This document shows positions 2,818 to 62,311 of a stretch of 64,000 bases of DNA, one piece after another (within the stretch, counting starts at the first letter, position 1; every line of letters begins with the position of its first letter). This DNA is from Puccinia triticina (taxonomy: Eukaryota > Basidiomycota > Pucciniomycetes > Pucciniales > Pucciniaceae), in assembly GCF_026914185.1 (NCBI RefSeq), contig NC_070561.1, forward strand, positions 5,146,001 to 5,210,000, read 5' to 3'. The notes beneath the pieces were generated by a model. It searched no databases. It was not told the origin of the DNA and worked only from the letters and a program-made list of their open reading frames with translations. Both the position numbers and the translations under genes were made by a program.

Positions 2818-2888
2818 ACGTGTGTGCTGGCCGGTCATTGGGGGAGTGTGTAGACGCCGCCCAATGACCGGGCTGTGCCGGCCATTGG

Positions 2889-3275
2889 AATGGCAACTGG
2901 AGCTTCTGCCCCTTGAGCTTTGTTTTTGAGGGGCTGTGTACCCAACCCGTGAGTATTTGGCAGGTTGGAAGCCCCGGAGGAGCGTTCCCGGGGGAGCGGG
3001 AGCCTGCGCTCAGTTTATTTTATGTATTTCTTTTTCATCCTTTTTTTGTGTCAAGCTGAGGGCTTCAAATACTGCAAGAATTTGGTGGAGGGGCAAGGAA
3101 AATCCCCTCTGCTGGCTGGCAGAGAAAAAAAAGGTAATTTTAAGGTTTTTAATCTGCAGTGCGCAAAGCGTTTTGAGCTGCCGTGCACTGTGGCCGGGAC
3201 ATTGAGTGGACACCCCATGCAGTGCGCAATGAGTTTTTTGCAGTGCGCAAAGTACATCCGTTTTTTTTTTATGTC
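2889..3275 (+). repeat. Dispersed repeat, copy 1 (partner at 46765-47075)
   Basis: Shares with 46765-47075 the ordered blocks GAGCTTTGTTTTYGAGGGGC, TTTGGCAGGTT, CCCGGGGGAGC, CCTCTGCTGGCTG and GTTTTTTGCAGTGCGCAAAG, ending in poly-T. Both copies directly follow a short run of ACCGGTCAT-type minisatellite. It contains no convincing ORF. It may be one end of a larger TIR element; superfamily unknown. Confidence 0.6.
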
Positions 3276-7677: not shown

Positions 7678-8177
7678 CACTGTGAAAAAAACTCAAGAAA
7701 GTGCTCTCAGTTGACATGCGCAATCCAGGTTCAGACTTCAAGTTCATCCAGGGTTATTCCATGATTTATTGCGGAGTAGCTCAGCTTCAAAATAAAATAG
7801 TGAGCTTTGGCTCAGACAGTAGTTCAGTGTTGGACTTGGTGCACAGTCTTTGCATGTGCCAAGCATATACCTCAACACCTGCTCAGTACTGCTCACTTTT
7901 CACCAACAAGGGGATGTATGTACATACACAGCGGGGAAAATCAAGGAAAGGTGGTGCGCCACATCCAAGCCACATCCAGTCAACGCCACGGATGCGCCAC
8001 TGAGACCTTGGGATTGCCCAGCAATTGCGCCAACATTAGGGGCGCCCCCATACCATCATCGCGGCGCTGTTGGGATGTCCCCAGCACGCTTTGGGTACCG
8101 TTGTGCAAAATCGGCATCCGGATGGGCGGCCCCGGGCGGCATGATGCGTGTGACCAATCAATGACCCAGACGAGCCA

Positions 8178-9430
8178 GTGACGCTTTGGTCCCAGAGCTC
8201 GCATCTGACTCCTACCGCCACCAGGCTGGGCCCATGGCGGCCCTGTGACAACACAAGTCTGGCATCTGTCTTCCATGATGATGAACGGACTTGTGAACAT
8301 TGCCATGTATGTACATATTGCTTCTATCATCAACTGAAACCTAACCCGCTTCATATCCCCGGACACCTCACAACCAATTCCTCAGGCAACCTCCCTTCTT
8401 CCCTCCAACCGACCATCATTCACCATCCCTTCTTCCCTCCGACTCCCCCTCCAACTCACTTTCTCTCCCCACCCTCAAGCATCAGGCCCTCGGCTCCTCC
8501 CCCGGACTCTCTCTTTATTATTAGCAATGTTGTTCAATCAATCTTGCCCATCATGCGCACAATTAACCAACTGCAAGGCATGATGGGCGGTGGAAGCTTC
8601 AGCATCTCAATGGCTAGCCAACTCATGATCCTCTGTCTCTTTCCAGCAGGTCTTGTTGTCCCTTCTGATGCTGACGTACAAGAAGAATTGGCCACCCGCG
8701 GGATTGTTTGGCCGCCGGTAGCTACTTGGTCCAGTAGCTAGTCACCGACTAACTCAAAGTAGAGATACTATGATTCTTTTCTTTATTTATAGCAATGCAA
8801 TGTTATGGGGGGCCATGCCCACCCCCAAGAACCTATTATATCATATGTGTGTGCCCTGACCCTTGGTCAAGTGCCAGTACCAAAAGCCCCACCCACGTGA
8901 GTCCCATGGGCCCCGCAGTTGCTTTTGCCCCATCAGAGTTCCGCAGAGCATCCACCTGCCATCAGTCACCAGGATGATCCAATTGATTTGGATCCCAATG
9001 GATCTGGCATACACTGTTGGTGCCGGATCAAATAGCCGCGGGTTGCTGCTGAACGCCTCAAGGGACCCGGGTCAAATATCCGCAGGTCGCCGCTCAGCGC
9101 CCCAAGGGTACCGGATCAACTATCCGCTGGCAGCGGCTGAGCGGTCCCCAACCTTGCCATATCCAGCAACCGGGACGCTCCAGCAGCGTGGTCCTCACCC
9201 CCATGGGAAGATCAAGGGCACGTCGCTGTGGCGCGCCAATCCCATTTCCGCAACAGGTGCGTGATCAGATTGTGCAACGGGGACGTTTCGTGATGCCTCA
9301 GGTGCGTCACGGTGGTGCGCCCCTGGGACATGTCGAGATTGAGCGCCACCGTTGTGGTCATTGAATTGCAGGGTCCCAGGGGCGCAACCCAATTGCCCTC
9401 CGGGCGGTCCATTGGCCCCGGGGTGTACAC
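8178..9430. other. Interior of the composite element, no gene recognised
   Basis: Includes a pyrimidine-rich stretch at 8385-8515 and an open frame ending at 8741 (SMASQLMILCLFPAGLVVPSDADV). The frame has no recognisable domain and probably is not a gene. Confidence 0.4.
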
Positions 9431-9439
9431 ATACATACA

Positions 9440-9820
9440 TACAAGCCCTTGGAAGGAATCCCTCCATGTCGACAAGGATACACGCCCATGTCAACCAGGA
9501 GGAATCTCTCTCGGTTGACAAGGGCATACATGCGCGCATAAGTATGTCAACCAGGAGGAATCCCTCCCGGCTAACAACCATATACAACAGTGTCAACCGG
9601 GAGGAATCCCTCCCGGACAATAAAAATACACATTGGTTGAAAACTATCTACAAACGTGTTGACCAGGAGAATCCCTCCCGGTCAACAGCTATTCACAACA
9701 TTTGACTGGGAGGAATCCCTTGTGGTCAATGAATCTATACTCTAGTCGACCGGGAGGCATTACTAGTTAACCAGGCGGAATGCCTCCCGTATGATGACTA
9801 TACACACTAGTTGACCGGTA
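9440..9820. repeat. Self-complementary minisatellite, left part
   Basis: Repeats of TTGACCGGGAGGAAT followed by CCCTCCCGGTCAA-type sequence, with spacers such as CTATACACACTAG between units. Each unit is an imperfect palindrome. The array resumes right of the solo LTR at 10696, so the LTR inserted into it. Confidence 0.85.
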
Positions 9821-10695
9821 TGGAGCTCCGCTTGGTGCTAGGCCGGCGGCAGCGCTGGGAGGGGAAAAAGTGCCTGGTGGCTGCCCTCTTGGATGGTCCG
9901 TAAAGGAGTCGTAGGGATTTGAGGTGATAGCATTGGGGGGAAGTGGTTTTGAAGTATTGTCAAGGTGTAGATTCTTGAAGGCGGTTGTTGGTTTGGATAC
10001 TTGAGGATTCTGGGAAAGGAAATGGATTAGATAGGACTCTTGACTCGGGATTCTTGATGATTGATCAAAAAGGTGATGCCCTTATTCTTGGATCAGAATG
10101 GCATGCCTCTCCCATCCTCCAAGTTCGACGAACTTGGACTCAGGGAGGCGACCTGTCACATGAATTTCATCACATCCTCCTTGCGCGCTACACGCGCGCA
10201 CACACACACACAACAAAACAGCAGAGAGAAGCAGAGAAACAGAGAAAAGACAGCAAGACACAGAAGAAGGGATGAGACACAATGAGATGAGACAGAAAGA
10301 AAGAAAAGAACCAAAGGTAAAGAAAAGAGCAGACAGAACACTCAGGACAAATAAGAACAAACAGAAAAAGGGAACAATGAATAAAACAGAGGGATAAACC
10401 CACAGCAGATGCTGTGTTAGGACCAAGAAAGGTGAAAAGGCTGGGGAACTGAGAGAGAAGAGGAGTGGAAAAAGAATTTGGGGTAGGAGAAGTGGAAATG
10501 AGGGAAGGAGAGGAAAATGATATTAAGAGGGGGGGGGGGAGTTAGAGAGATGAGCAGGATGAATCTTGAGGATCTTGATGCTTCTTGAGGGTGAATTCTT
10601 GAGGCTTGAGGAATGAAATTTAAAACTGGACTCTTGATGACAATCCTGGCGGCAGCGATGCTCCTGACTAGCTGACCACGAAATAGGCCACCACA
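9821..10695 (-). repeat. Solo LTR inserted in the minisatellite
   Basis: About 875 bp, from TGGAGCTCCGCTTGGTGC to GGCCACCACA. It shares GTGCTAGGCCGGC with the LTRs of the element at 22710-27442 and long blocks with the LTR at 1907-2817. A 4-bp CCGG occurs near both ends but is ambiguous because the minisatellite itself contains CCGG. No internal coding region adjoins it. Confidence 0.75.
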
Positions 10696-11590
10696 CCGGG
10701 AGGGATTCCTCCCGGTCAATTGGGAGGAATGCCTTCCAGTCAATGATTATACACACTAGTCAACCGGGAGGAATCCCTCCCGTTTGATGAATCTATACTC
10801 TAGTCAACCGGGCGGAATGCCTCCCGGTCAATGACTATACACACTAGTCGACCAGGAGGTATTCCTCCCAGTTGATGACTATGTATTCTAGTTGACCAGG
10901 AGGAATTCCTCCCGACCGATGACTATGTACTCTAGTTGACCGGGAGGAATGCCTTCCGGTTGACAGCTATTCGCAATAGTTGACCGGGAGGAATCCCTCC
11001 CGGCCAAAGACTGTATACTCTAGTTGACTGAGCGGAATGCCTCCCGGTCAATGACTATACACACTAGTCAACCTATTCCTCCCGATCAATGACTACGTAC
11101 TGTAATCAACTGGGAGGGATTCTATACGCACCTCCCGGTTGATGACGGTTGATGACTATGTACTCTAGTCAATTGGGAGGAGTGCTTTCTGGTTGATTAT
11201 TATACACACTAGTCAACCGGGAGGAATCCCTCCCGTTTGATGAATCTATACACTAGCCGACCGGGAGGAATCCCTCTCGGTCAACAGCTATTTGCAACAG
11301 TTGACTGGGAGGCCAGTCAACAAGTGTGTACAGTCGTTGACCGGAAGGGATTCCTCCTGGTCAACAGTTGCAAATAGCTGTCGATTCCTCCCGTTTGACT
11401 AGAGTATAGATTCATTGACCGGGAGAAATTCCTCCCAATCAACGGTTGTGAATAGCTGTCAACCGGGAGGAATCCGGTCAACTGGGGTATGTAGTTGTTG
11501 ACCAGGAGGGATCCCTCCCGGTTGACTGTTGTGTATTATCATGTCAACTTGGAGGGATCTATCCTGGTTGACTGTTTTATGGAAAACTCA
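10696..11590. repeat. Self-complementary minisatellite, right part
   Basis: More than fifteen variants of TTGACCGGGAGGAATCCCTC and its complement, spaced by ATGACTATACACACTAGT-type spacers. Units alternate and drift, so the array is old. The palindromic arms would fold as hairpins in RNA or single-stranded DNA. Confidence 0.85.
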
Positions 11591-11632
11591 TGACAAGGGC
11601 CGGTATTACATCATCAACCCTGTGTATACAAT

Positions 11633-12108
11633 CAACGGTGGGCCAGCTACGCTAACTGTAGCGTTAGCGTGGCGTAGCGTAGCGGAATTCCGCTAACTTT
11701 TAGCGTAGCGTTAGCGGAATTGTGCCTTTCTGCGCTAATGCTACGCGCAAAGGGTGCGCAGCTAATTTAGCTGTTAGCGTAGCGTTAGCGCAGATGCGCG
11801 CAATTGCGCTAACGCTACACACGCAGGGCGCAAAAGAGCGCGCGCTACGGTGCGCCACAGTGCTTTTAGCTGAAAAAAAGGCCTTTTTTCCGCTAAAAGC
11901 GCTGTAGCGCAGCGTAGCGTAGCGTAGTGAATGTAGCGGCGCGCTAACACTAACATACAATTGGCGCGCTGTTAGCGCCGCTGAAACGTAGCGCAGCATA
12001 GCGGCGCTAACAGCGCGCTAACGCTACTCAAAATGAGCGGGCGCTTTTTGCCGCTACGCTAACGCTAAGTGGCCCTGTAGCGTAGTGTAGCGTAGCGGCC
12101 CACCGTTG
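11633..12108. mobile_element. hAT-like element built of TAGCG/CGCTA motifs, copy 1
   Basis: Ends are CAACGGTGGGCC and its inverse. The flanks are TATACAAT and TATACAAA, a 7-of-8 match to an 8-bp duplication. Almost the whole interior is TAGCG and CGCTA in mixed orders, so it is strongly self-complementary. A near-identical copy is at 32178-32648. No ORF is meaningful. Confidence 0.8.
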
Positions 12109-12369
12109 TATACAAAATATGGCTTAGCCTGGAGGGGCTGGGCTGCCCAGCTGGCTTGGCAAACCTTGGGTGTCCCAGCTGAGTGTTTTCCTGAGGGCTC
12201 AGAGTCTTCTGTTTTGTATACCTCAGTCAAGTGCAATATGCACTAAAATTAAGTTGAGCACCTTCCAAATATTCCTGGAATTAATTTGTATGGGACTGGT
12301 ATCAACTATGAATGGACTCAAGTATGCTGCATGTCAACTGACAGCAGTTTCTTGAGTTTTTTTATGGAA

Positions 12370-14189: not shown

Positions 14190-14760
14190 TCAGATAATAT
14201 TGCCGGAGGCATATCTCATAATGGTGGATGCACTATTCAGAGTGCGGGACACACTTTTCATAGTGGGACACACTTTTGATACGGACACACTTTTGATAGT
14301 GGCGGACACACTTTTGATAGCGGCGGATGCACTTTTCATAGTGGCAGGCACACTTTTCATAATGGCGGACACACTTTTCATAGTGGCAGACACACTTTTT
14401 GTAGTGGCGGATGCACTTTTCAAAGTGCCAGAGGCAGATTTTTTTTGTGTTGCACCAAAGGGGCTGGTAGAGGGCCTGTGCAAACTCATCTGGGGCCTTT
14501 GGGCCCCAGAGAAGCTTGCATTGGCCCTCTACGCGCCCCTTTGAGCCATTATTTGAATTTATTCAAATATTCAAGCTTATATTTGCCCACACATTATTTG
14601 ACTTGAATTGAATTCAAATACAAATAATCAAATCAAATTGGAATACAAATACTTGAATCGAATTTGAATATGAATACTTGAATCGAATTAGAATACAAAT
14701 ACTCAAATCAAATTCAAATACAAATACTCGAATTGTTCTGATTCAATGTGCTATGCCCTG
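14190..14760. mobile_element. Truncated hAT-like copy, inverted relative to 15103-15800
   Basis: Mirror image of 15103-15585: same 21-bp tandem unit, the same TTTGGGCCCCAGAGAAGCTT block, AT-rich segment and terminal CTATGCCCTG at 14751-14760. The other end (about 110 bp in the intact copy) is absent, so this copy is truncated at about 14190. Confidence 0.75.
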
Positions 14761-15102
14761 CCATTTGCCATGGTCAAAGGCTTGTCCAACAATGACACAT
14801 GAGCTTCAAATCTGCAAGAGACGTCAATGGAAGGCATGATAAAAACACTTGTCTTTTCAAATTCTCTTCCTTCTTCATTTCTTTTATCTAAGATATTGTA
14901 ACCTCAAGTAAAAAAGATGTGGGAACTCTCCAAATGAATAGTTGTCTTTTTTAGCCTACAGATGTTTTTTTTGTACTTCCAACATGAGGATATACACCAT
15001 AGTTTGCAATGCCCAAGCAAATCTGCACTTTTTTCAAAAAGAGAAATAGTGATGAGTTTCCCACAAGGAGTGCCGGGGCCCTCTTCCAGAGTCTAGAGAA
15101 TC

Positions 15103-15800
15103 CAGGGCATAGCATATTGAATTGAATAGATTCAACTATTTGTATTTAAATTTGATTCGAGTCAAATAATGCCTGGGCAAATTTAAGCTTGAATATACTT
15201 GAATAAATTCAAATAATGGCTCAAAGGGGCGTGTAGAGGGCCAATGCAAGCTTCTCTGGGGCCCAAAGGCCCCAGATGAGTTTGCACAGACCCTCTACCA
15301 GCCACTTTGGTGCAACACCAAAAAAATCTGCCTCTGGCACTTTCAAAAGTGCGTCTGCCACTACAAAAAGTGTGTCTGCCACTATGAAAAGTGTGTCTGC
15401 CACTATGAAAAGTGTGTCTGCCACTATGAAAAGTGTGTCTGCCACTATGAAAAGTGTGTCCGCCACTATCAAAAGTGCGTCCGCCACTATGAAAAGTGTG
15501 TCCGCCACTATGAAAAGTGTGTCCGGCATTCTGAATAGTGCATCCACCATTATGAGATATGCCTCCAGCATTATTGTAAGCGTCTTTGGCACCATGATAT
15601 TTTTGACGGATGACCTCCTCAAAAATGTATGGCCCAGAAATGGGCCAAAAGAAGTCAAAAACACAAAAAATGTAATTTTTTGGTGTTTTTAATGTATTTT
15701 GGAAGTTTTTCCATCAAGAATCTCCGAGTACTCGAATACTCAACATATCAGTATTCGGGGGGCCCAAAAAACGTGTTGAATATCACCGTACTATGCCCTG
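15103..15800. mobile_element. hAT-like non-autonomous element with internal 21-bp tandem repeat
   Basis: Ends CAGGGCATAG and CTATGCCCTG. Flanks AGAGAATC and AGAGAAGC form an 8-bp duplication with one mismatch. It interrupts the dispersed repeat known intact at 4420-4740. Inside, 15345-15535 holds about nine copies of a 21-bp unit (CTGCCACTATGAAAAGTGTG plus T), which reads as a seven-residue repeat SATMKSV on the plus strand. No transposase. Confidence 0.85.
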
Positions 15801-20332: not shown

Positions 20333-20361
20333 TAGGGCCCTGTTTGGCACCAATATAATTA

Positions 20362-21999
20362 GGGTCAGCCTAAATGCACTCCAAAAGTGAGTTGATGGAG
20401 CATGCACTCCAAGAAAGTTGGAGTGTGGGCCCCAGCAAGCCAAAGAAATTGGAGTAAGCCACCATGCACTCCATTTGCCACCAAATTTAATGAGTGTCCC
20501 AATAGTTCCCTCCATACAATTGGAGTGCATGGACCCAGCACTCCCTTTCTGATATTTTACTCCCTGAAAAAGGAGTGCCCCCTGCACACTCCAGCATCCA
20601 GTGGAGTACACTTGATGCCAGCCATCAATTGTGTATGTACACACCCCAATCAATGACCAACCATCCATTGGAGCACACCCCTCCGCTTGACCAGTCATCT
20701 CGTCATGTGAGGTACACACACCACTCTATGGTTAGTCGTGGAGTGGGATGTGCACTCCTAGAGTGACCATACTGCTCAATGGCTGGCCATCAACAGACAC
20801 ATTCCACTCAATGGCCGGTCATTGGGCAGAGCACACGCTTGATGACCAGTCATTGAGTGGGATGTGTACCCCAATGACCGGTCATCAAGCGGAGTACACA
20901 CCTTGTTTGCTGACCGGCCATTGAGTGATGTTCACACTTGATGGCCGGTCATCGAGCAAGATGTGTATTCCGCTCAATTGCCGGTCATTGAGCCAAGAAC
21001 ACACCTCACTCTCACCAACCTCAATTGATGATCGCCAATCAAGTGCACATCACACTTGCCGGTCAACCAGCGGGGTGTGCTCCGCTCGATGACCGGTCAA
21101 CCAGCGGGATGGGTACCCCACTCGATGGCCGGTCATTGAGCGGAGCACACACCCTGCTGGTTGACCGGTCATTGACTGGGATGGGTTGACCGGTCATTGA
21201 GTGGGATGTGCACTTGATGACCGGCCATTGAGAGGAGTGCACACCTTGCTCAATGACCAGCCATCTAGTGGGGTACACATCCCGCTGGTTGACCGGTCAT
21301 CAGATTCGAGTGGGATGTGCACTTGATGGGCGGTCATCGAGCAAGGCGTGCACTCCGCTCAATGGCCGGTCATCGAGTGGGGTAAACATCCCGCTGGTTG
21401 ACTGGTCATTGAGTGGGATGTGCACTTGATGGCCGGTCATCAAGCAAGGCGTGCACTCCGCTTGATGGCCGGTCATCAAGCGGAGCACACACCCGGCTGG
21501 TTGACCGGTCATCAAGTGGGATGTGCACTTGATGGCCAGTCATTGAGGGATGTGTACCCCACCCAATGACCGGTCAACCAGCAGGATGTGTCCTCCGCTT
21601 GATGACTGGTCATCAAGTGGGGTCTCTAGTACTACTCCTCTTGATGGCCAGTCTGGGGCCAGGTGGGCACTCCAAAAAAGAGTGGAATGGAGTGTACTCC
21701 AATGCACTCCAGTTGAAATTGTGCCAACTGGAGTGCAGAGCCAAAACCCTTTGCTCAAAAAGTGAGTGCTTGGGTGTATACTCCATTTTTTTTGGAGTGT
21801 ATCTAGCTGCACTCCCTTATTTTGGTAAGTTTTGGCTTACCCTGGCCTGTAATTCAACATAAATGGAGTGCCCATATGGAGACTCCATGAATTTGGAGTG
21901 CAAAATCACAGCACTCCAATATTTTTGGAGTACCCATTCCCCAAAGCCAAAAATGTGGAGTGCATGAAGTAAATTTTTGGAGTGCATTTAGGCTGACCC
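20362..21999. mobile_element. TIR element carrying a palindromic minisatellite
   Basis: Ends GGGTCAGCCTAAATGCACTC and its exact inverse, with a perfect 8-bp duplication TATAATTA (20354-20361, 22000-22007). Subterminal regions contain many GGAGTGCA and TGCACTCC motifs. The centre is the ACCGGTCAT minisatellite. No transposase. A relative with different interior is at 28037-29601. Superfamily uncertain (Mutator-like or hAT by duplication length). Confidence 0.85.
20800..21640. repeat. ATGACCGGTCAT palindromic minisatellite
   Basis: More than twenty GACCGGTCAT, GGCCGGTCAT or inverse cores with spacers such as CAAGCGGAGCACACACC and GAGTGGGATGTGCACTTG. The core dodecamer is a perfect palindrome. 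The same core recurs in arrays at 30205, 34690, 38316 and 46560. Confidence 0.85.
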
Positions 22000-22221
22000 T
22001 ATAATTATAGGTAATATAATCAACCAATATGAAGTGATATAATGGTATTATGGTGCTGAAGATGGCTGAATCAGTTGAATATGATTTCAAAGTTGAATAG
22101 AGCAGCACTGTAGGTTTCCTACAAGAAAGATTTGGAGGCTTCATGTTGAATTTTGTACATTTTATTGAATTAATCAGTGATTATATTACCTATACTTATA
22201 TCGGTGCCAAACAGGGCCTAG

Positions 22222-28739: not shown

Positions 28740-29330
28740 AAGAGGGAAGTTCCTCCCTGCGAGCTGGTATGTGTATACCAACTCACCAAGAGGGACTCTC
28801 CTTCTGGCGAGCTGGTATGCGTATACCAGCTCGCCAAGAGGAAATCCCCTCCCGGCGAGCTGGTATGCACATACCAGCTCTCCAAGAGGGGAATCTCCTC
28901 CCGGTGAACTCCTCTCTTGGTGAGCTGTTTGTGTATACCAGCTCTCCTAGAGGGACTCTCCCCCCGGCAAGCTGGTATACATATACCAGCTTTCCGGGAT
29001 GGGATAGTTCTTGGAGGGACTCTCCTCCCAAAGATTTCTCTTGGAGAGCTGGTAAAAATCCATCTCCAGGCGATCTAGCAAACTAGAAGAACACCCTTCC
29101 TTTGGGCTGGCTCTCCGGGAGGAATATGTACCTCTTGGCAAGCTAGACCTTTGAACGGCCCACCAAGGGTGTTAATCCCAGCGAGCTGGTCAAAGTTCAG
29201 CTCTCCATGAGGTAAGTATTCCTCTTGAAGAGCTGGATTTGTACCAGCTCTCCAGGAGTTTATGTACCTCTCCAGCTTGCCAAGAGCTCTCCAGGCAAGG
29301 AAAAATTACCTCCACCTCACTGAGAGCTCT
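28740..29330. repeat. GAGCTGGTAT/ATACCAGCTC palindromic minisatellite
   Basis: About ten degenerate units of the form GAGCTGGTATGCGTATACCA with spacers like GCCAAGAGGGACTCTCC. Each unit is a hairpin. The architecture matches the ACCGGT arrays, but the core sequence is different. Confidence 0.8.
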
Positions 29331-29982: not shown

Positions 29983-30610
29983 TAGAGATCGCCAAGTGGA
30001 CCCGTGCTCGGGTACCCGGGACCCGCGGGTGGGTACCCGCCACATGGCGTTGGGTACCTGCGCGCGGGTGCCGTGTACGGGTCCGGGTGCGGGATTTTGG
30101 GCAAAAAAGCACCAGGTACCCAGATACCCGCCAAAAATACCCGCGGCAGGCGGGTCTTCCAGGTACCCGGGTACCTGCTGTTACAGTCACCGAGGGGGTT
30201 GATTCCTCAAGATGACCGGGACAGATCCTGGTCATCAAGGGGAATCAGCCCTCTCGATGACCGGGCCAGATCCCGGTCATCGAGAGGAAACAACCCTCTC
30301 GATGACCGGGACAGAACCTGGTCATCGAGAGAAAACAATACTCTCAATGACCGGGACAGGACCCGGTCATCAAGAGGAAACAACCCTCCCAATGACTGGG
30401 ACAGAGCCCGGTCATTGAGAGGAACCATCACTCCTGATGAACAGTCTGTAGCTGTCATTGAGTGAGGGTGTTGGATAAAAAAAAGCACAAGTACCCGCGG
30501 TACCCGCAAAAAGTACCGCCGGTACCCGCCCGCGGGTGCCATGTACGGGTACGGGTGTCTGAATATCACGAAAAACACCGCGGGTACCCGGGTCCACTTG
30601 GCAATCTCCA
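29983..30610. mobile_element. TIR element with GGTACCCG repeats and ACCGGG minisatellite
   Basis: Ends TAGAGATCGCCAAGTGGACC and, inverted, TGGAGATTGCCAAGTGGACC, flanked by the 8-bp AAAAAAAC on both sides (29975-29982, 30611-30618). Subterminal GGTACCCG/CGGGTACC repeats. The centre is a GATGACCGGG minisatellite (30205-30470). A truncated relative may start at 34632 (CCAAGTGAACCCGGGTGCGG). Confidence 0.8.
30205..30470. repeat. GATGACCGGGACAG...CCGGTCATC palindromic minisatellite
   Basis: Six units of ATGACCGGGACAGA, then CCCGGTCATCGAGAGGAAAC. Each unit is a hairpin with a short loop. Same ACCGGK core as 20800-21640. Confidence 0.85.
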
Positions 30611-33694: not shown

Positions 33695-33956
33695 GGCCCC
33701 GTTTGGCACCAATACAAATACAGGTGATATAATTGCTGATTAATTCAATAAAAAATACAAAATTCATATGAAGCAATATAATGGTATTATGGTGCTCAAG
33801 ATGGCTGAATCAGTTGAATCCAAGTTATCATTTGAAGAGACCAGCAATGTAGGTTGCCTACAAAAAGAATTGGAGGCTTTATGTTGAATTTTGTATTTTT
33901 TATTGAATTAATCAGCAATTATATCACCTATATTTATATGGGTGCCAAACGGGGCC
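33695..33956. mobile_element. Harbinger-like MITE, intact copy
   Basis: 262 bp, ends GGCCCCGTTTGGCACCAATA and its inverse (TATGGGTGCCAAACGGGGCC at the right). Flanked by TAA on both sides. No ORF. Matches the interrupted copy at 20336-22218. Confidence 0.85.
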
Positions 33957-34178: not shown

Positions 34179-34253
34179 TGTGTGTTATGGGATTTGAACC
34201 CATGACCTTCTACATTCATGAGAGCTGCTCTAATACCACTGAGCTAAACACAC
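34179..34253 (-). tRNA. tRNA-like sequence, anticodon arm degraded (possible pseudogene)
   Basis: The minus strand folds with a perfect acceptor stem GTGTGTT/AACACAC, D stem GCTC/GAGC, A-box TAGCTCAGTGGTA, T arm ATGGG-TTCAAAT-CCCAT and a discriminator A, at a canonical total of 75 nt. The anticodon arm GCTCT-CATGAAT-GTAGA has two mismatches and lacks U33, so no anticodon can be assigned safely. It may be a tRNA pseudogene, a SINE head, or a tRNA with a local sequence error. Confidence 0.55.
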
Positions 34254-34639: not shown

Positions 34640-34850
34640 AGTGAACCCGGGTGCGGGTACTGCCTGGTTTTTTTGCCCAAAACAGATGTGCCTTCTCAAT
34701 GACCGGTGTGTTCCGGTCATTGAGAGGGAGGTGTGCCTTCTTGATGACTGGTGTGGGCCGGTCATCAAGAGGGATGTGTGCTGGTCATCGAGGGGGTTGT
34801 GTACATACCCTCTGGATGACCAGCACGGACCATCAAGAGGGGTGCTGCGG
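34640..34850. repeat. ACCGGTCAT minisatellite in a truncated TIR element
   Basis: Three to four GATGACCGGTGTG...CCGGTCAT units with AGAGGG(A/G)GGTGTGCCTTC spacers. Preceded by ACCAAGTGAACCCGGGTGCG, which resembles the ends of 29983-30610; the other end was not found. Confidence 0.6.
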
Positions 34851-37666: not shown

Positions 37667-37890
37667 CTGACGGAAAGAAATGTGTCACGGGTAAGCTCAT
37701 GTACGCTCGGTATCGGTCCAATCTCGGTGATTGATTACGCTTACCTGACGGAAAGAAATGCGTCACGGGTAAGCTCATGTACGCTCGGTATCGGTCCAAT
37801 CTCGGTGATTGATTACGCTTACCTGACGGAAAGAAATGCGTCACGGGTAAGCTCATGTACGCTCGGTATCGGTCCAATCTCGGTGAGGAA
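37667..37890. repeat. 78-bp tandem repeat, about 2.9 copies
   Basis: Unit starts CTGACGGAAAGAAATG and repeats at 37667, 37745 and 37823 with almost no divergence, so the duplication is recent. The unit is a multiple of three, hence long open frames on both strands. It lies about 380 bp after the thaumatin-like gene. Confidence 0.9.
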
Positions 37891-38315
37891 AAGAGAGGAC
37901 CGGTACCGGGTGCAATGATTAGACTAAGTACAAGAGCTGCACAGCCGCAGTTATGCATGTATGTACAATGGTTGATATATGCATAACTCTAGCCTAAGAT
38001 GATTAAAGTTTACCACCTTGGTCATCCCGGCCTCCAACACAGAGCATCTCCAACGGACTCGCTAAAGCGGGACTCGCGACCCCAATTTAGCGAGTCGGGC
38101 GAGTTTTCGGGGTCCAACGGACTCGCTACACGACTCGCCAAACGCCTCCCGAGTCGCCTCAACTCGCCACAGCCCTCCACTTGTGGCGAGTCTGCTCCAA
38201 CCCGACACTCGGCCCTCGTGGGCCGCACCTCGCACCAGCTCGCACCCCACGCACACTATACCGCACGCTACCTCACCTACCGGCCGATCCTCTTTTCATT
38301 CAATTGGATCTCGCT

Positions 38316-38620
38316 GCCGATGACCGATCATCAATAGGATGACCGGGCATCGATGCCCATGACCGGTCATCAATAGGATGACCGGTCATCAAGACCGATG
38401 ACCGAGCATCAAGACTGATGACCGGTCATCGAAACCGATGCCCGGGCATCAAGACTGATGGCCGGTCATCAAGACCGGAGACCGGGAATCGAGACTGATG
38501 ACCGGTCATCAAGACCGATGACCGGGCATCGAGAATGATGACCATGACTGGATATCCTATCGATGACCGGGCATGATGCACATGGCCGGTCATTGAAAGG
38601 ATGACCGGCGGGTGTTCGAG
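38316..38620. repeat. GATGACCGGTCATC minisatellite
   Basis: About ten units of GATGACCGGTCATCAAGACC and GATGACCGGGCATCGAGAC with small variants. Core is again the palindrome ATGACCGGTCAT. Confidence 0.88.
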
Positions 38621-38703
38621 AATCGGAAGGATGACCAGAAGGTGGTCATCTGTCTGTGTGGCTCGACGGGCGAGTTGTGGTATTGCCGACGATAAGTTGG
38701 TCC

Positions 38704-38845
38704 CGAGCTTAACAAAGCCTCACTGTGAGAGCCCCGAAGGGGCAGCCCCGCAGGGTCTCCGTCTCACAGAGACGGGAGGTCGCACTTCGTGCGAGGCGCT
38801 TCGCGCCCCTGCCCCCCGGCAGGCGAGGGACTTGTGCTAAGTTCG
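38704..38845. mobile_element. 142-bp multi-hairpin MITE of the Mutator-like family
   Basis: Ends CGAGCTTAACAAAGCCTC and, inverted, CGAACTTAGCACAAGTCCC, flanked by a perfect 9-bp duplication AGTTGGTCC (38695-38703, 38846-38854). The interior is a row of short hairpins: GCCCCGAAGGGGC, GTCTCCGTCTCACAGAGAC, TCGCACTTCGTGCGA and GGCGCTTCGCGCC. Same terminus as 6686-7262 and 61241-62311. Confidence 0.88.
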
Positions 38846-39022
38846 AGTTGGTCCAGCCTCTTGTCGGGTCTCTATTGCTGGCGAGTCCGCTGTGGACCAA
38901 GCCTGGGATACCCCGTTTACATGTGGTCCAGGGCCGCGACCCAGGGTCTGCGCGATCCAGGGACCGTTGGAGATGCTCTCAGACATCAGTGCAGCCTTCA
39001 CAAGTAGCAAGTTCCGGGACAT

Positions 39023-46225: not shown

Positions 46226-46559
46226 CTTGTCTGAGAATCTACTGTCCAGCTGCGCTATCCCACAGAGTTTACGACCAGCAAGCGCAAAGCGTGAGGCGTA
46301 CGAGAGTTGTATGTCCTGGATTGGGGAGAATATGGTTAGTGAACACTGGGCATGGATGAGGAAGATAGGGAAGTGCATACTTTACTGGCGAGTCAGACCA
46401 TCGTCTTTCTTGGATGTTCGGTGGATTTGTGCTGCTGGTGATCACCCTTGATGACCTCGGTTGGCAGTGGGACTGATTATGTCATCATCCCCCGCACACA
46501 GCGCGCAGAGCACAAAACCAAAAACAAAACTACCCAAAACAAACACCGTCAGTTTAAGC
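46226..46559. promoter_or_regulatory. Presumed 5' region of the coiled-coil gene
   Basis: Includes a possible leader intron on the minus strand and an A/C-rich stretch at 46500-46545. No TATA box identified. Confidence 0.3.
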
Positions 46560-46750
46560 CCATACTCCTCTCGATCACCAGAAAAAACTGGTCATCAAGG
46601 GGAGTGACTACACACTGCAAAGAACGGGTCATCAAGGGGAGTGCTCCTCTCGACAACCGAAACGGAACCGGTCATCGAGGGGAGTGTTTACTCCTCCCGA
46701 TGACCGGAACGGACTCGGTCATCGGAGGAATCTCCGCTTGATAACCGCCC
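46560..46750. repeat. ACCGG(T/A) minisatellite next to the dispersed repeat
   Basis: Units such as CTCCTCTCGATCACCAG, CTGGTCATCAAGGGGAGTG, CTCCCGATGACCGGAACGG and CGGTCATCGAGGGGAGTG. Immediately followed by dispersed repeat copy 2, the same order as at 2830-3275. Confidence 0.75.
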
Positions 46751-46764
46751 GGTGCCGGCCACCA

Positions 46765-61240: not shown

Positions 61241-62311
61241 CGAACTTAACACAAGCGTACCCTCCTTGGGGGAGTGTAGCGACCTCCAAAGGAGGGACTT
61301 GCCTCTAAAGTCGCATGTCTCGCCCTACAGGATTGAGACAAATGGCAGGGAGCAACAATGGGAAGTTACGTTATCCAGTTTGCTTAGGTGTGATTTAGTT
61401 ATCCAGTCCTCTGGGGTGTGAAATCCAACATAAATTCAATCTGTGGGTGTCAAAAGAAAGGCTGAATATTGATTAACAGTATGGTCCCACTTTTTTTCCA
61501 AGATACTCCTATTTTTGATGTTGAAATATCACTTTTGTGACCAAAAATCAGTTATCTGGGTAACTTAGACCAGATAACTGATATTTGGTCACAAAAGCGT
61601 TATTTTAACATCAAAAATAGGATTTCCTTGAAATGAATTGGGATCCATATTGTTAATCAACATTAAACCTTTCTCTTGACACCCACAGATTCAATTTATG
61701 TTGGATTTCACACCACATAGGACTGGATAACTAAATCACACTGAGGCAAACTGTATAACGTAACTTCCCATTGTTGCAGGGAGGACCCTACGCTCCCCCA
61801 TTTTCCCCAATATCTCCCTGTTTCCTTTTGATTCATCCCACGCCCTTTGCACCATTGGAATGGCAAGCTTCTTAGCTTATTTTCCCCCACTTCAAACTCC
61901 CCCGTATCCATCCCCCCTTGTAAGAAATGTCCTGTAAATGTTGTTACATGGTGGATTTCTGTACCCAATCCCCACCTTCGAGCCCGCGCGGGCTCAGGGA
62001 ATTTCAAATTTTGAGCTCAAAAACCGCTGGATCACCTCTCCAGAACCACTTCACAGTAGGTGGAGTGGGTTAGTAATTATGTGTGTCAGCTAGGTAAAAA
62101 AATGTGAAATGGAAGCTGAGATTGCAGGCTACAAGTCTGTCTACTCAGATTTTTTTTAAACTAAAAACTACATTTTTAAAAAAAAATTTGAAAATAAAAT
62201 ATGTGTTTTTTTGCCAAAAATTCTCAAGTCTGTGGGGCCAATGGTGTGACTTTAGAGGTAAGCCTCTCCTTCGGAGACGCTTTGCGCCTCCTCGGAGGCT
62301 TTGTTAAGCTT
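61241..62311. mobile_element. Mutator-like element with hairpin-rich ends
   Basis: Flanked by the 10-bp duplication GGGACATGGC (61231-61240, 62312-62321). Ends CGAACTTAACACAAGCG and, inverted, AAGCTTAACAAAGCCTCC. Inner inverted blocks (GGGACTTGCCTCTAAAGTC at left, inverse of GACTTTAGAGGTAAGCC at right). Terminal hairpins such as CCTCCTCGGAGG and TCTCCTTCGGAGA match the style of 38704-38845. No transposase. Confidence 0.85.
61353..61776. mobile_element. Foldback element, 424 bp
   Basis: Almost the entire sequence is one inverted repeat: CAACAATGGGAAGTTACGTT at left and its near-inverse at right, with arms of about 210 bp. Perfect 7-bp duplication CAGGGAG (61346-61352, 61777-61783). Nested in 61241-62311. 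Confidence 0.88.

What the first reader, a model, noticed from the sequence alone, without database searches (positions are those of the whole stretch)
20362..21999. One palindromic minisatellite core spread through DNA elements with unrelated ends
Arrays built on ATGACCGGTCAT or ACCGGGA lie inside 7678-12367, 20362-21999, 29983-30610 and 38041-38979, and near 2830, 34690 and 46560. Their TIRs differ (CACTG..., GGGTCAGCC..., GAGATYGCC..., AGAGCATCTCC...). Each unit is a hairpin. Shared cores with unshared ends cannot come from transposition of one element. Options: gene conversion or capture, a recognition site for a host or transposase protein, or a source of hairpin RNA. This could be an undescribed class of passenger repeat in rust genomes.
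Basis: partly seen in the sequence, partly recalled or inferred. Interest (0 to 1): 0.78.

Follow-up and report, generated by a model that had tools for sequence, protein, structure and literature searches.

The report
Shared half-site arrays inside unrelated transposons
In what looks like a rust-fungus genome, the same 15-letter DNA word, repeated in alternating orientation, sits in the middle of non-coding jumping elements with unrelated ends, which points to a shared recognition sequence or to swapping of internal parts between elements.

Summary
ATGACCGGTCAT occurs 1,027 times genome-wide against 9 for the reversed word; the half-site YTYRATGACCGG 23,061 times against 69. The shared thing is less a hairpin than a 15-bp half-site, CCTCTCGATGACCGG, in alternating orientation, arm centres most often 21-22 bp apart (346 of 709). 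Of 54 arrays, 22 lie between matched element ends, 16 have one end, 16 none; of 1,000 random intervals 13 lie between matched ends. Of 32 candidate elements, 21 have exact target-site duplications: 8 bp (once 9) for three TIR types, 3 bp for four others, so more than one kind of transposase is involved. Outer arm bases are as alike between element groups as within them, while the bases between arms fall to near chance (20 arrays; PIFb and PIFc left out). Paired arms do not covary. I favour a recognition site for a common factor, with neutral exchange a close rival. The repeat in 7678-12367 is probably a different one. Kind: a new variant of tandem-repeat-carrying non-autonomous DNA transposons.

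The parts
20362..21999 (.). Non-autonomous TIR element (hATa type), TIR GGGTCAGCCTAAATGCACTCC, carrying the array
   Evidence: TIR pair; exact 8-bp TSD TATAATTA at the ends; TIR 21-mer exact 154+137 times genome-wide
20354..20361 (.). Left 8-bp target-site duplication TATAATTA
22000..22007 (.). Right 8-bp target-site duplication TATAATTA
20811..21613 (.). Array of spacer-less palindromes (ATGACCGGTCAT and variants); 39 arm sites at <=4 mismatches in the whole element, shuffle mean 0.35
29983..30610 (.). Non-autonomous TIR element (hATb type), TIR TAGAGATYGCCAAGTGGACCCG with one further changed base at the right end, TSD AAAAAAAC
30211..30424 (.). Array of 45-bp units: 15-bp arms in alternating orientation, 8-bp spacer, 7-bp linker
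38042..38978 (.). Non-autonomous TIR element (PIFb type), TIR GAGCATCTCCAACGG; TSD imperfect (aca/tca)
   Evidence: its first 270 bp have relatives genome-wide at 81-99% (40 best candidates scored)
38317..38610 (.). Array of 12-bp palindromes every ~20 bp
34687..34802 (.). Short array of arms, no convincing element ends found
46540..46760 (.). Short decayed array, no convincing element ends found
2828..2890 (.). Two to three decayed arms, no convincing element ends found
20336..22218 (.). PIF-like MITE (TIR GGCCCTGTTTGGCAC, TSD TAG; 237 bp without the insert) into which the 20362-21999 element inserted

Best explanation
SHOWN: a 15-bp half-site (consensus CCTCTCGATGACCGG), laid head-to-head and tail-to-tail, most often at about two helical turns, forms arrays in the interior of non-autonomous DNA transposons of seven TIR types and two TSD-length classes (8-9 bp: two hAT-like types and one unassigned long-TIR type; 3 bp: two PIF/Harbinger-like and two CACTA-like types; superfamily names are inferred). 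Outer arm bases are as alike between element groups as within them, while the short sequences between arms are near chance between groups and vary in length. INFERRED: the half-site is a recognition sequence for one trans-acting factor, more likely a host DNA-binding protein than any of the unrelated transposases. Arrays of it give the carrier some advantage in copying or survival, so array-bearing variants of many element families were amplified. Arrays also pass between families by recombination or nested insertion. After insertion the copies decay.
For: Element membership: 22 of 54 arrays between matched ends against 13 of 1,000 random intervals, or 3 if pairs enclosing an array are left out; exact TSD at the ends of 21 of 32 candidate elements. 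Constant arms: in one metric, the outer seven arm bases exceed shuffled identity by 0.220 within element groups (9 pairs of arrays) and 0.226 between them (181 pairs), while same-length gaps fall from 0.311 (9 pairs) to 0.051 (121 pairs). With only loci not picked by the hairpin or half-site pattern, the between-group values are 0.190 and 0.026 (20 arrays, PIFb and PIFc left out). The outer seven bases agree with CCTCTCG at 5 or more positions in 12 of 15 group consensuses, or in 7 of the 10 groups with no locus picked by the hairpin pattern. Orientation: among neighbours 12-32 bp apart in 27 elements, 667 alternate and 42 do not; 346 of 709 centre distances are 21-22 bp. Genome-wide, exact 14-mer pairs 2-10 bp apart number 291 and 163 inverted against 4 direct. 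Arms are not kept as hairpin partners: own-arm identity 0.619 against 0.649 for shuffled partners, and 0.273 against 0.364 for spacer-less units. In 9 of 17 pairwise copy alignments (four with L006, hATa L011/L018, the three PIFa and the LT pair) half-sites differ less than linkers.
Against: No factor has been identified. Spacer length varies, which a rigid dimer would not tolerate well. In the other 8 of 17 copy alignments, five among the hATa copies and all three PIFb pairs, half-sites differ more than linkers (for example L008/L012: 0.126 and 0.080), and in 14 of 17 they differ more than the element ends. The retention of the CCGG CpG relative to the TCGA CpG is largely matched by background context and by how loci were chosen. 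PIFb, PIFc and Y keep only 3-4 of the outer 7 arm bases. Some gaps are clearly shared between groups (excess 0.25-0.41 in the eight largest of 121 pairs), so part of the arm likeness is common descent. 16 of 54 arrays have no known end nearby, and of the nine arrays in L035-L043 only one has both ends.
Confidence: 0.42

Rival explanations
1. Neutral passenger: one ancestral minisatellite spread between element families by nested insertion, composite mobilisation and gap-repair template switching at the arrays themselves, with no function. Arms look constant because detection and recombination both favour them.
For: Array replacement: the hATa_w array is nearest to that of hATb_L005 (TAGAGATGGCC ends; linkers 0.84 against 0.52 for shuffles one way, 0.61 against 0.39 the other) and not to its own TIR family; that pair has the largest gap excess of all 121 between-group pairs (0.41). 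PIFd and PIFe arrays are nearest to the long-TIR type. Nesting occurs: an hATa and a long-TIR element sit at the same site in two copies of one MITE. Half-sites diverge faster than ends in 14 of 17 copy pairs.
Against: Outer arm bases are as alike between groups as within, while gaps drop to near chance, also in loci that were not picked by those bases. For most subfamilies with several members the nearest array is from the same subfamily, so exchange is not free-running.
Confidence: 0.36
2. Hairpin or double-stranded RNA source: arrays are transcribed and diced into 21-22-nt small RNAs that act on copies in trans; the common 21-22-bp arm spacing reflects the small-RNA register.
For: 346 of 709 arm distances are 21-22 bp; the two spacer-containing units folded are stable (z -5.3 and -6.2) and two neighbouring palindromes pair with each other (z -4.7).
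Against: No covariation of paired arms, and no consistent excess of G.T over A.C mismatches. A single spacer-less palindrome does not fold. No Rfam family reaches its threshold on the arrays of the window. No small-RNA data were at hand.
Confidence: 0.1
3. Independent growth of similar palindromes in each element family by replication slippage (convergence).
For: Other palindromic minisatellites lie in the same window (10722-11284, 28740-28904), so palindrome-rich arrays arise here readily.
Against: Convergence is not expected to give the same 12-15 bases in seven TIR types: 23,061 half-sites against 69 for the control word.
Confidence: 0.03

Closest known systems
Tandem-repeat-carrying MITEs and Helentrons of bivalves (Pearl, DTC84, Cg_HINE; PMC7492417 and PMC5139131, passages seen)
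   Same: Non-autonomous DNA elements with a central tandem array that spreads through the genome with its carrier; related flanks can carry unrelated arrays.
   Different: In the oyster study each array cluster goes with one pair of flanks, the 11 elements are all Helentrons, and array orientation to the flanks is fixed. Here one 15-bp half-site occurs under TIRs of two TSD-length classes, in alternating orientation.
MITEs with hitchhiking (GTCY)n microsatellites (Coates 2011; seen only as a reference and table entry in PMC6947457 and as a reference in PMC4596501)
   Same: Short repeats riding inside MITEs.
   Different: Not read here; by its title, a simple microsatellite riding in MITEs, not a constant inverted half-site in elements with unrelated ends.
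Minisatellite-containing MITE of Porphyromonas gingivalis (PMC4596501, search listing and one reference-list passage)
   Same: Minisatellite inside a MITE.
   Different: Bacterial; described in the listing as one novel MITE.
Subterminal transposase-binding repeats of hAT elements (Ac/Ds; recalled, from no call)
   Same: Short repeated motifs as protein sites within an element.
   Different: Those belong to one transposase and lie next to the ends. Here the motif is central and shared across TIR types; the hATa element also has its own GGAGTGCA-type repeats near its ends (visible).

Membership tests
Non-autonomous TIR DNA transposon | Terminal inverted repeats flanking the array | tested here: met
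   22 of 54 arrays between matched ends, 13 of 1,000 random intervals; 16 arrays with one end and 16 with none do not meet it as fetched
Non-autonomous TIR DNA transposon | Target-site duplication exactly at the ends | tested here: met
   21 of 32 candidate elements; four of the twelve longer ones are homopolymer-like
Non-autonomous TIR DNA transposon | No transposase coding | tested here: inconclusive
   Longest stop-free reading 228 aa in the 13 arrays/elements examined. One reading (window 29986-30462) had no homologue at E<=0.1 among 246 candidates. The readings were not scanned with Pfam; Pfam was run on 10 window ORFs, one of them (8154-8738) inside 7678-12367, and showed no transposase
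hAT superfamily (hATa, hATb) | 8-bp TSD | tested here: met
   hATa: four of 8 bp and one of 9 bp; hATb: three of 8 bp, one of them (L005) assigned with doubt
hAT superfamily (hATa, hATb) | Mobilised by a hAT transposase with the same TIRs | tested here: inconclusive
   hAT dimerisation domain is common in the genome (150 scored matches), but no coding partner with these TIRs was looked for beyond that
PIF/Harbinger (PIFa-e) | 3-bp TSD, typically TWA | tested here: inconclusive
   A 3-bp TSD in 6 of 10 elements: TAA, TTA, TAA, TCA, TAA, TCA; L016, window 38042, L007 and L011 fail. TCA is not TWA. The superfamily label rests on the TSD and on recalled TIR types
CACTA/CMC (X, Y) | CACTR-type ends and 3-bp TSD | tested here: inconclusive
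   CACTG with TAA; CACCACC with CAT and TAG. CACCA departs from CACTR; the rule is recalled
Tandem-repeat-containing MITE (bivalve type) | One array type per pair of flanks (as reported for oyster) | tested here: not met
   The same half-site under seven TIR types with exact TSDs; hATa ends carry two array types

The most novel reading that the evidence does not exclude
A portable cis-module: one host DNA-binding protein recognises CCTCTCGATGACCGG, and arrays of that site have been recruited into non-autonomous elements of several superfamilies because they help any carrier (by opening chromatin, aiding end pairing or copying, or evading silencing), whichever transposase moves it.
Probability: 0.33. 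Interest if true: 0.86.

Novelty: new variant of a known kind. Interest (0 to 1): 0.64.

Why it matters
Internal sequences of non-autonomous transposons are usually taken as family-specific filler. One short half-site kept across elements that must use different transposases means either a shared selective requirement that I found no description of, or swapping of internal parts between unrelated elements on a large scale. The half-site count (23,061 exact matches to YTYRATGACCGG) makes this a large repeat class of this genome, and both readings can be tested with genome, methylation and small-RNA data.

Tried and rejected
Flawed or weaker versions. Searches paired arms too loosely and paired spacer-containing units wrongly; one search replaces them. 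One search counted a few array-derived inverted repeats as TIRs (window 9592-11526, L011 3129-4285, L018 3857-5802), so its 14 of 32 (TIR plus TSD) is approximate; searches are the cleaner counts. One search (generic TIR plus TSD finder) returned mostly array-internal pairs in array-rich loci. In its part not chosen by the repeat (window plus six places of my own choice) 2 of 12 pairs held arrays, and those two are one nest; its filters also drop 29983-30610 (homopolymer-like TSD) and 38042-38978 (imperfect TSD). So arrays are not a general property of TIR elements.

Hairpin selection: not supported as the main constraint. CpG retention as a sign of selection: 5-fold in the samples, but 2-fold in background contexts and 2.7-fold in arrays not used for fetching, so inconclusive. 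Post-insertion conservation of half-sites over linkers: seen in 9 of 17 copy pairs and not in 8. One search printed only the three best neighbours of each array, so the general statement on gaps rests.

Protein search with an array reading (none of 246 candidates at E<=0.1), Rfam on the window (only a tRNA) and Pfam on ten window ORFs (a WD40 match, a weak oxygenase match, nothing for the other eight) gave nothing on the arrays.

Literature: ten searches (open-licence PMC only) gave no title or abstract start that describes this repeat; most hits were seen as listings only. Passages were seen of PMC12210899, PMC6947457, PMC7492417, PMC4596501 and PMC5139131. Puccinia papers listed but not opened include PMC10977897 and PMC12129025. 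The 12-mer appears in one paper on a bacterium (PMC9241672, listing). PMC12210899, on rust transposons, has no occurrence of 'tandem', 'minisatellite' or 'palindrom' in its main text.

Other rust genomes could not be searched: G000 has no relatives here, and no eukaryote collection is offered.

Full report
WHAT WAS CHECKED. The window is C4:5146001-5210000 of a 122.8-Mb, 18-contig genome. ATGACCGGTCAT at <=1 mismatch occurs 26 times in the window (shuffle mean 0.09) and 1,027 times exactly in the genome, against 9 for the reversed word. The half-site YTYRATGACCGG occurs 11,492 + 11,569 times against 35 + 34.

ELEMENTS. I fetched the first 14 palindrome clusters on C1 (consecutive, so not hand-picked) and six places of my own choice, ten hairpin places and nine half-site places. 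Clusters of at least four half-sites give 54 arrays in the window and L005-L043; the six chosen places hold none. With a library of 11 element ends learned from these loci, 22 arrays lie between matched ends, 16 have one end and 16 none. Of 1,000 random non-array intervals, 13 lie between matched ends, 3 if pairs that enclose an array are left out. By sample the counts are 17 of 32 (window and L005-L024), 4 of 13 (L025-L034) and 1 of 9 (L035-L043). The last two samples were cut to 2.4-3.4 kb, so ends can be missed, and the library was learned mostly from the first sample, so 17 of 32 is favoured. One element of the last sample, L039 441-1487, has a TIR pair and a TSD but was missed by the library. 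The one that the library did find there, L043, has no TSD.

TARGET-SITE DUPLICATIONS. Of 32 candidate elements, 21 have an exact TSD at the ends with no shift. The long group: GGGTCAGCC (hATa; TATAATTA, CAAAAAAA, AAAAAAAT, TATTTAAT and the 9-mer TTTCTGCCC), TAGAGATNGCC (hATb; AAAAAAAC, GTAGACAA, and ATTGGAAC for L005, whose assignment is less sure) and CGGRYBTACTTCGCG with long TIRs (LT; TATAAATA, TTTTTTTT, TATTTTAA, TACTATTT). Four of these twelve are homopolymer-like. The 3-bp group: GGCCCCGTTTGGC (TAA, TTA), GAGCATC or GAGCTTC (TAA, TCA, TAA, TCA), CACTGCGGGC (TAA) and CACCACC (CAT, TAG). The 11 without are L018 3520 (an alternative inner end), L043, hATa2 L025 (cut by the locus end), L040 (one mismatch, shifted), L016, window 38042, L007 twice, L011 2192, L028 and L034. 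TSDs of 8 and 3 bp are not expected from one transposase. Superfamily names rest on TSD length and recalled TIR types, not on found partners; hAT dimerisation domains are abundant (150 scored matches).

NESTING. The window hATa element lies inside a 237-bp PIF-like MITE (20336-22218, TSD TAG), inserted at TATAATTA. In L017 an LT element, with unrelated ends, sits at the same position of another copy of that MITE (TATAAATA). An array-free copy is at window 33695-33956. Nesting of this kind gives a route by which one element's array can come to lie between another's ends (inference).

WHAT IS SHARED. In most of 15 element groups the arm consensus is CCTCTCGATGACCGG or close. The outer seven bases, which the scan for ATGACCGG does not use, agree at five or more positions in 12 of 15; PIFb, PIFc and Y are the exceptions. 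Five of the twelve rest in whole or part on loci picked by a pattern that holds CTCTCG. Among the ten groups with no such locus, 7 agree. The palindrome (spacer -4) is two arms overlapping by CCGG; other listed spacers run from 2 to 9 bp and listed linkers from -13 (overlapping arms) to 22 bp. Among neighbours 12-32 bp apart in 27 elements, 667 of 709 alternate, and 346 of 709 centre distances are 21 or 22 bp; overlapping palindromes are outside that range. Genome-wide, exact 14-mer pairs 2-10 bp apart number 291 and 163 in the two inverted arrangements and 4 in direct orientation.

ARMS AGAINST GAPS. Measured in the same way, as mean pairwise identity above shuffled, the outer seven arm bases score 0.220 within element groups (9 pairs of arrays) and 0.226 between them (181 pairs). 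Same-length gaps score 0.311 within (9 pairs) and 0.051 between (121 pairs). With only loci not picked by the hairpin or half-site pattern, the between values are 0.190 (74 pairs) and 0.026 (47 pairs). The set was 20 arrays; PIFb and PIFc, whose outer arms differ, were left out, which favours the arms. The largest gap likeness between groups is 0.41, for hATa_w and hATb_L005.

HAIRPIN OR SITE. If hairpins were selected, an arm should match its own partner better than other arms of the same element. It does not: 0.619 against 0.649 (sd 0.009) in 216 units with a spacer, and 0.273 against 0.364 (sd 0.013) in 173 without. Own arms are even less alike than shuffled ones, perhaps because units occur in both orientations within an array. 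G.T and A.C mismatches are about equal in most groups, but not in spacer-less PIFb (48 and 86) and hATa (91 and 67) units. Of four stretches folded as DNA, two spacer units and a pair of neighbouring palindromes are stable and a single palindrome is not.

ARRAYS AGAINST ENDS. In most subfamilies with several members the nearest array belongs to the same subfamily, and hATa gaps match at 0.91-0.99 among three copies against 0.65-0.73 for shuffles. So arrays descend with their ends at close range. Exceptions point to transfer: the hATa_w array is nearest to that of hATb_L005 (65% over 407 bp; linkers 0.61 and 0.84 against 0.39 and 0.52) rather than to four other hATa copies whose right ends it shares at 82-83% over about 340 bp. 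PIFd and PIFe arrays are nearest to LT arrays. Among 17 pairwise copy alignments, half-sites differ less than linkers in 9 and more in 8, and differ more than the ends in 14 (for example L008/L012: half-sites 0.126, linkers 0.080, ends 0.028; PIFa L014/L016: 0.098, 0.219, 0.022).

CpG TEST. Within the half-site, the TCGA CpG is intact in 286 and decayed in 268, while the CCGG CpG is 554 and 102. Background contexts already differ two-fold, and arrays not used for fetching give 2.7-fold. I draw no conclusion from it.

READING. The anatomy of the 21 TSD-bounded elements is secure, apart from the few with homopolymer-like TSDs; what share of all arrays lies in elements is not. That arms stay alike while gaps change between groups argues for a recognised half-site. 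The mixed post-insertion conservation, the variable spacing and the exchanges leave a neutral passenger close behind. I put the recognition-site reading at 0.42 and the neutral exchange reading at 0.36. The check that added one search did not move these odds: it strengthens the arm-gap contrast, while the recount weakens other points.

KNOWN RELATIVES. Tandem arrays inside MITEs and Helentrons are known. In oyster, each array cluster goes with one pair of flanks (PMC7492417, passages). The case here is the converse: one half-site, many unrelated ends. I found no description of it in the searches listed under Tried and rejected, which cover open-licence papers only and were mostly seen as listings.

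Noticed in passing
window 20336-22218; L017 5647-8823: Two unrelated array-bearing elements (hATa and long-TIR) are inserted at the same TATAAWTA site, 26 bp from the end of two copies of one PIF-like MITE: perhaps an insertion hotspot.
   Followed up: yes
window 10722-11284 and 28740-28904: Two further palindromic minisatellites (44-bp and 48-bp units); the second has no half-site, the first only weak likeness.
   Followed up: partly
   Followed up: partly
window 14196-15595: Large inverted repeat (289-bp arms at 94%) with 21-bp tandem repeats TCATAGTGGCGGACACACTTT.
   Followed up: no
window 61352-61777: 208-bp inverted repeat with only 10 nt between the arms, 87% complementary.
   Followed up: no
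window 37667-37886: 78-bp tandem repeat, 2.8 copies at 99% matches, 155 bp before the 38042 element.
   Followed up: no
window 34179-34253 (-): tRNA gene by Rfam.
   Followed up: no
window 20362-20660 and 21640-21999: hATa ends are rich in GGAGTGCA/TGCACTCC repeats, like subterminal transposase sites, and nearly free of CpG (0.03-0.10 observed/expected outside the array in the three copies measured, against 0.63-0.93 in the array).
   Followed up: partly
G000:C3:4079398-4090940, C4:4519676-4531258 and others: Some neighbouring opposite hATa TIRs lie 10-13 kb apart: candidate long or nested members not examined.
   Followed up: no
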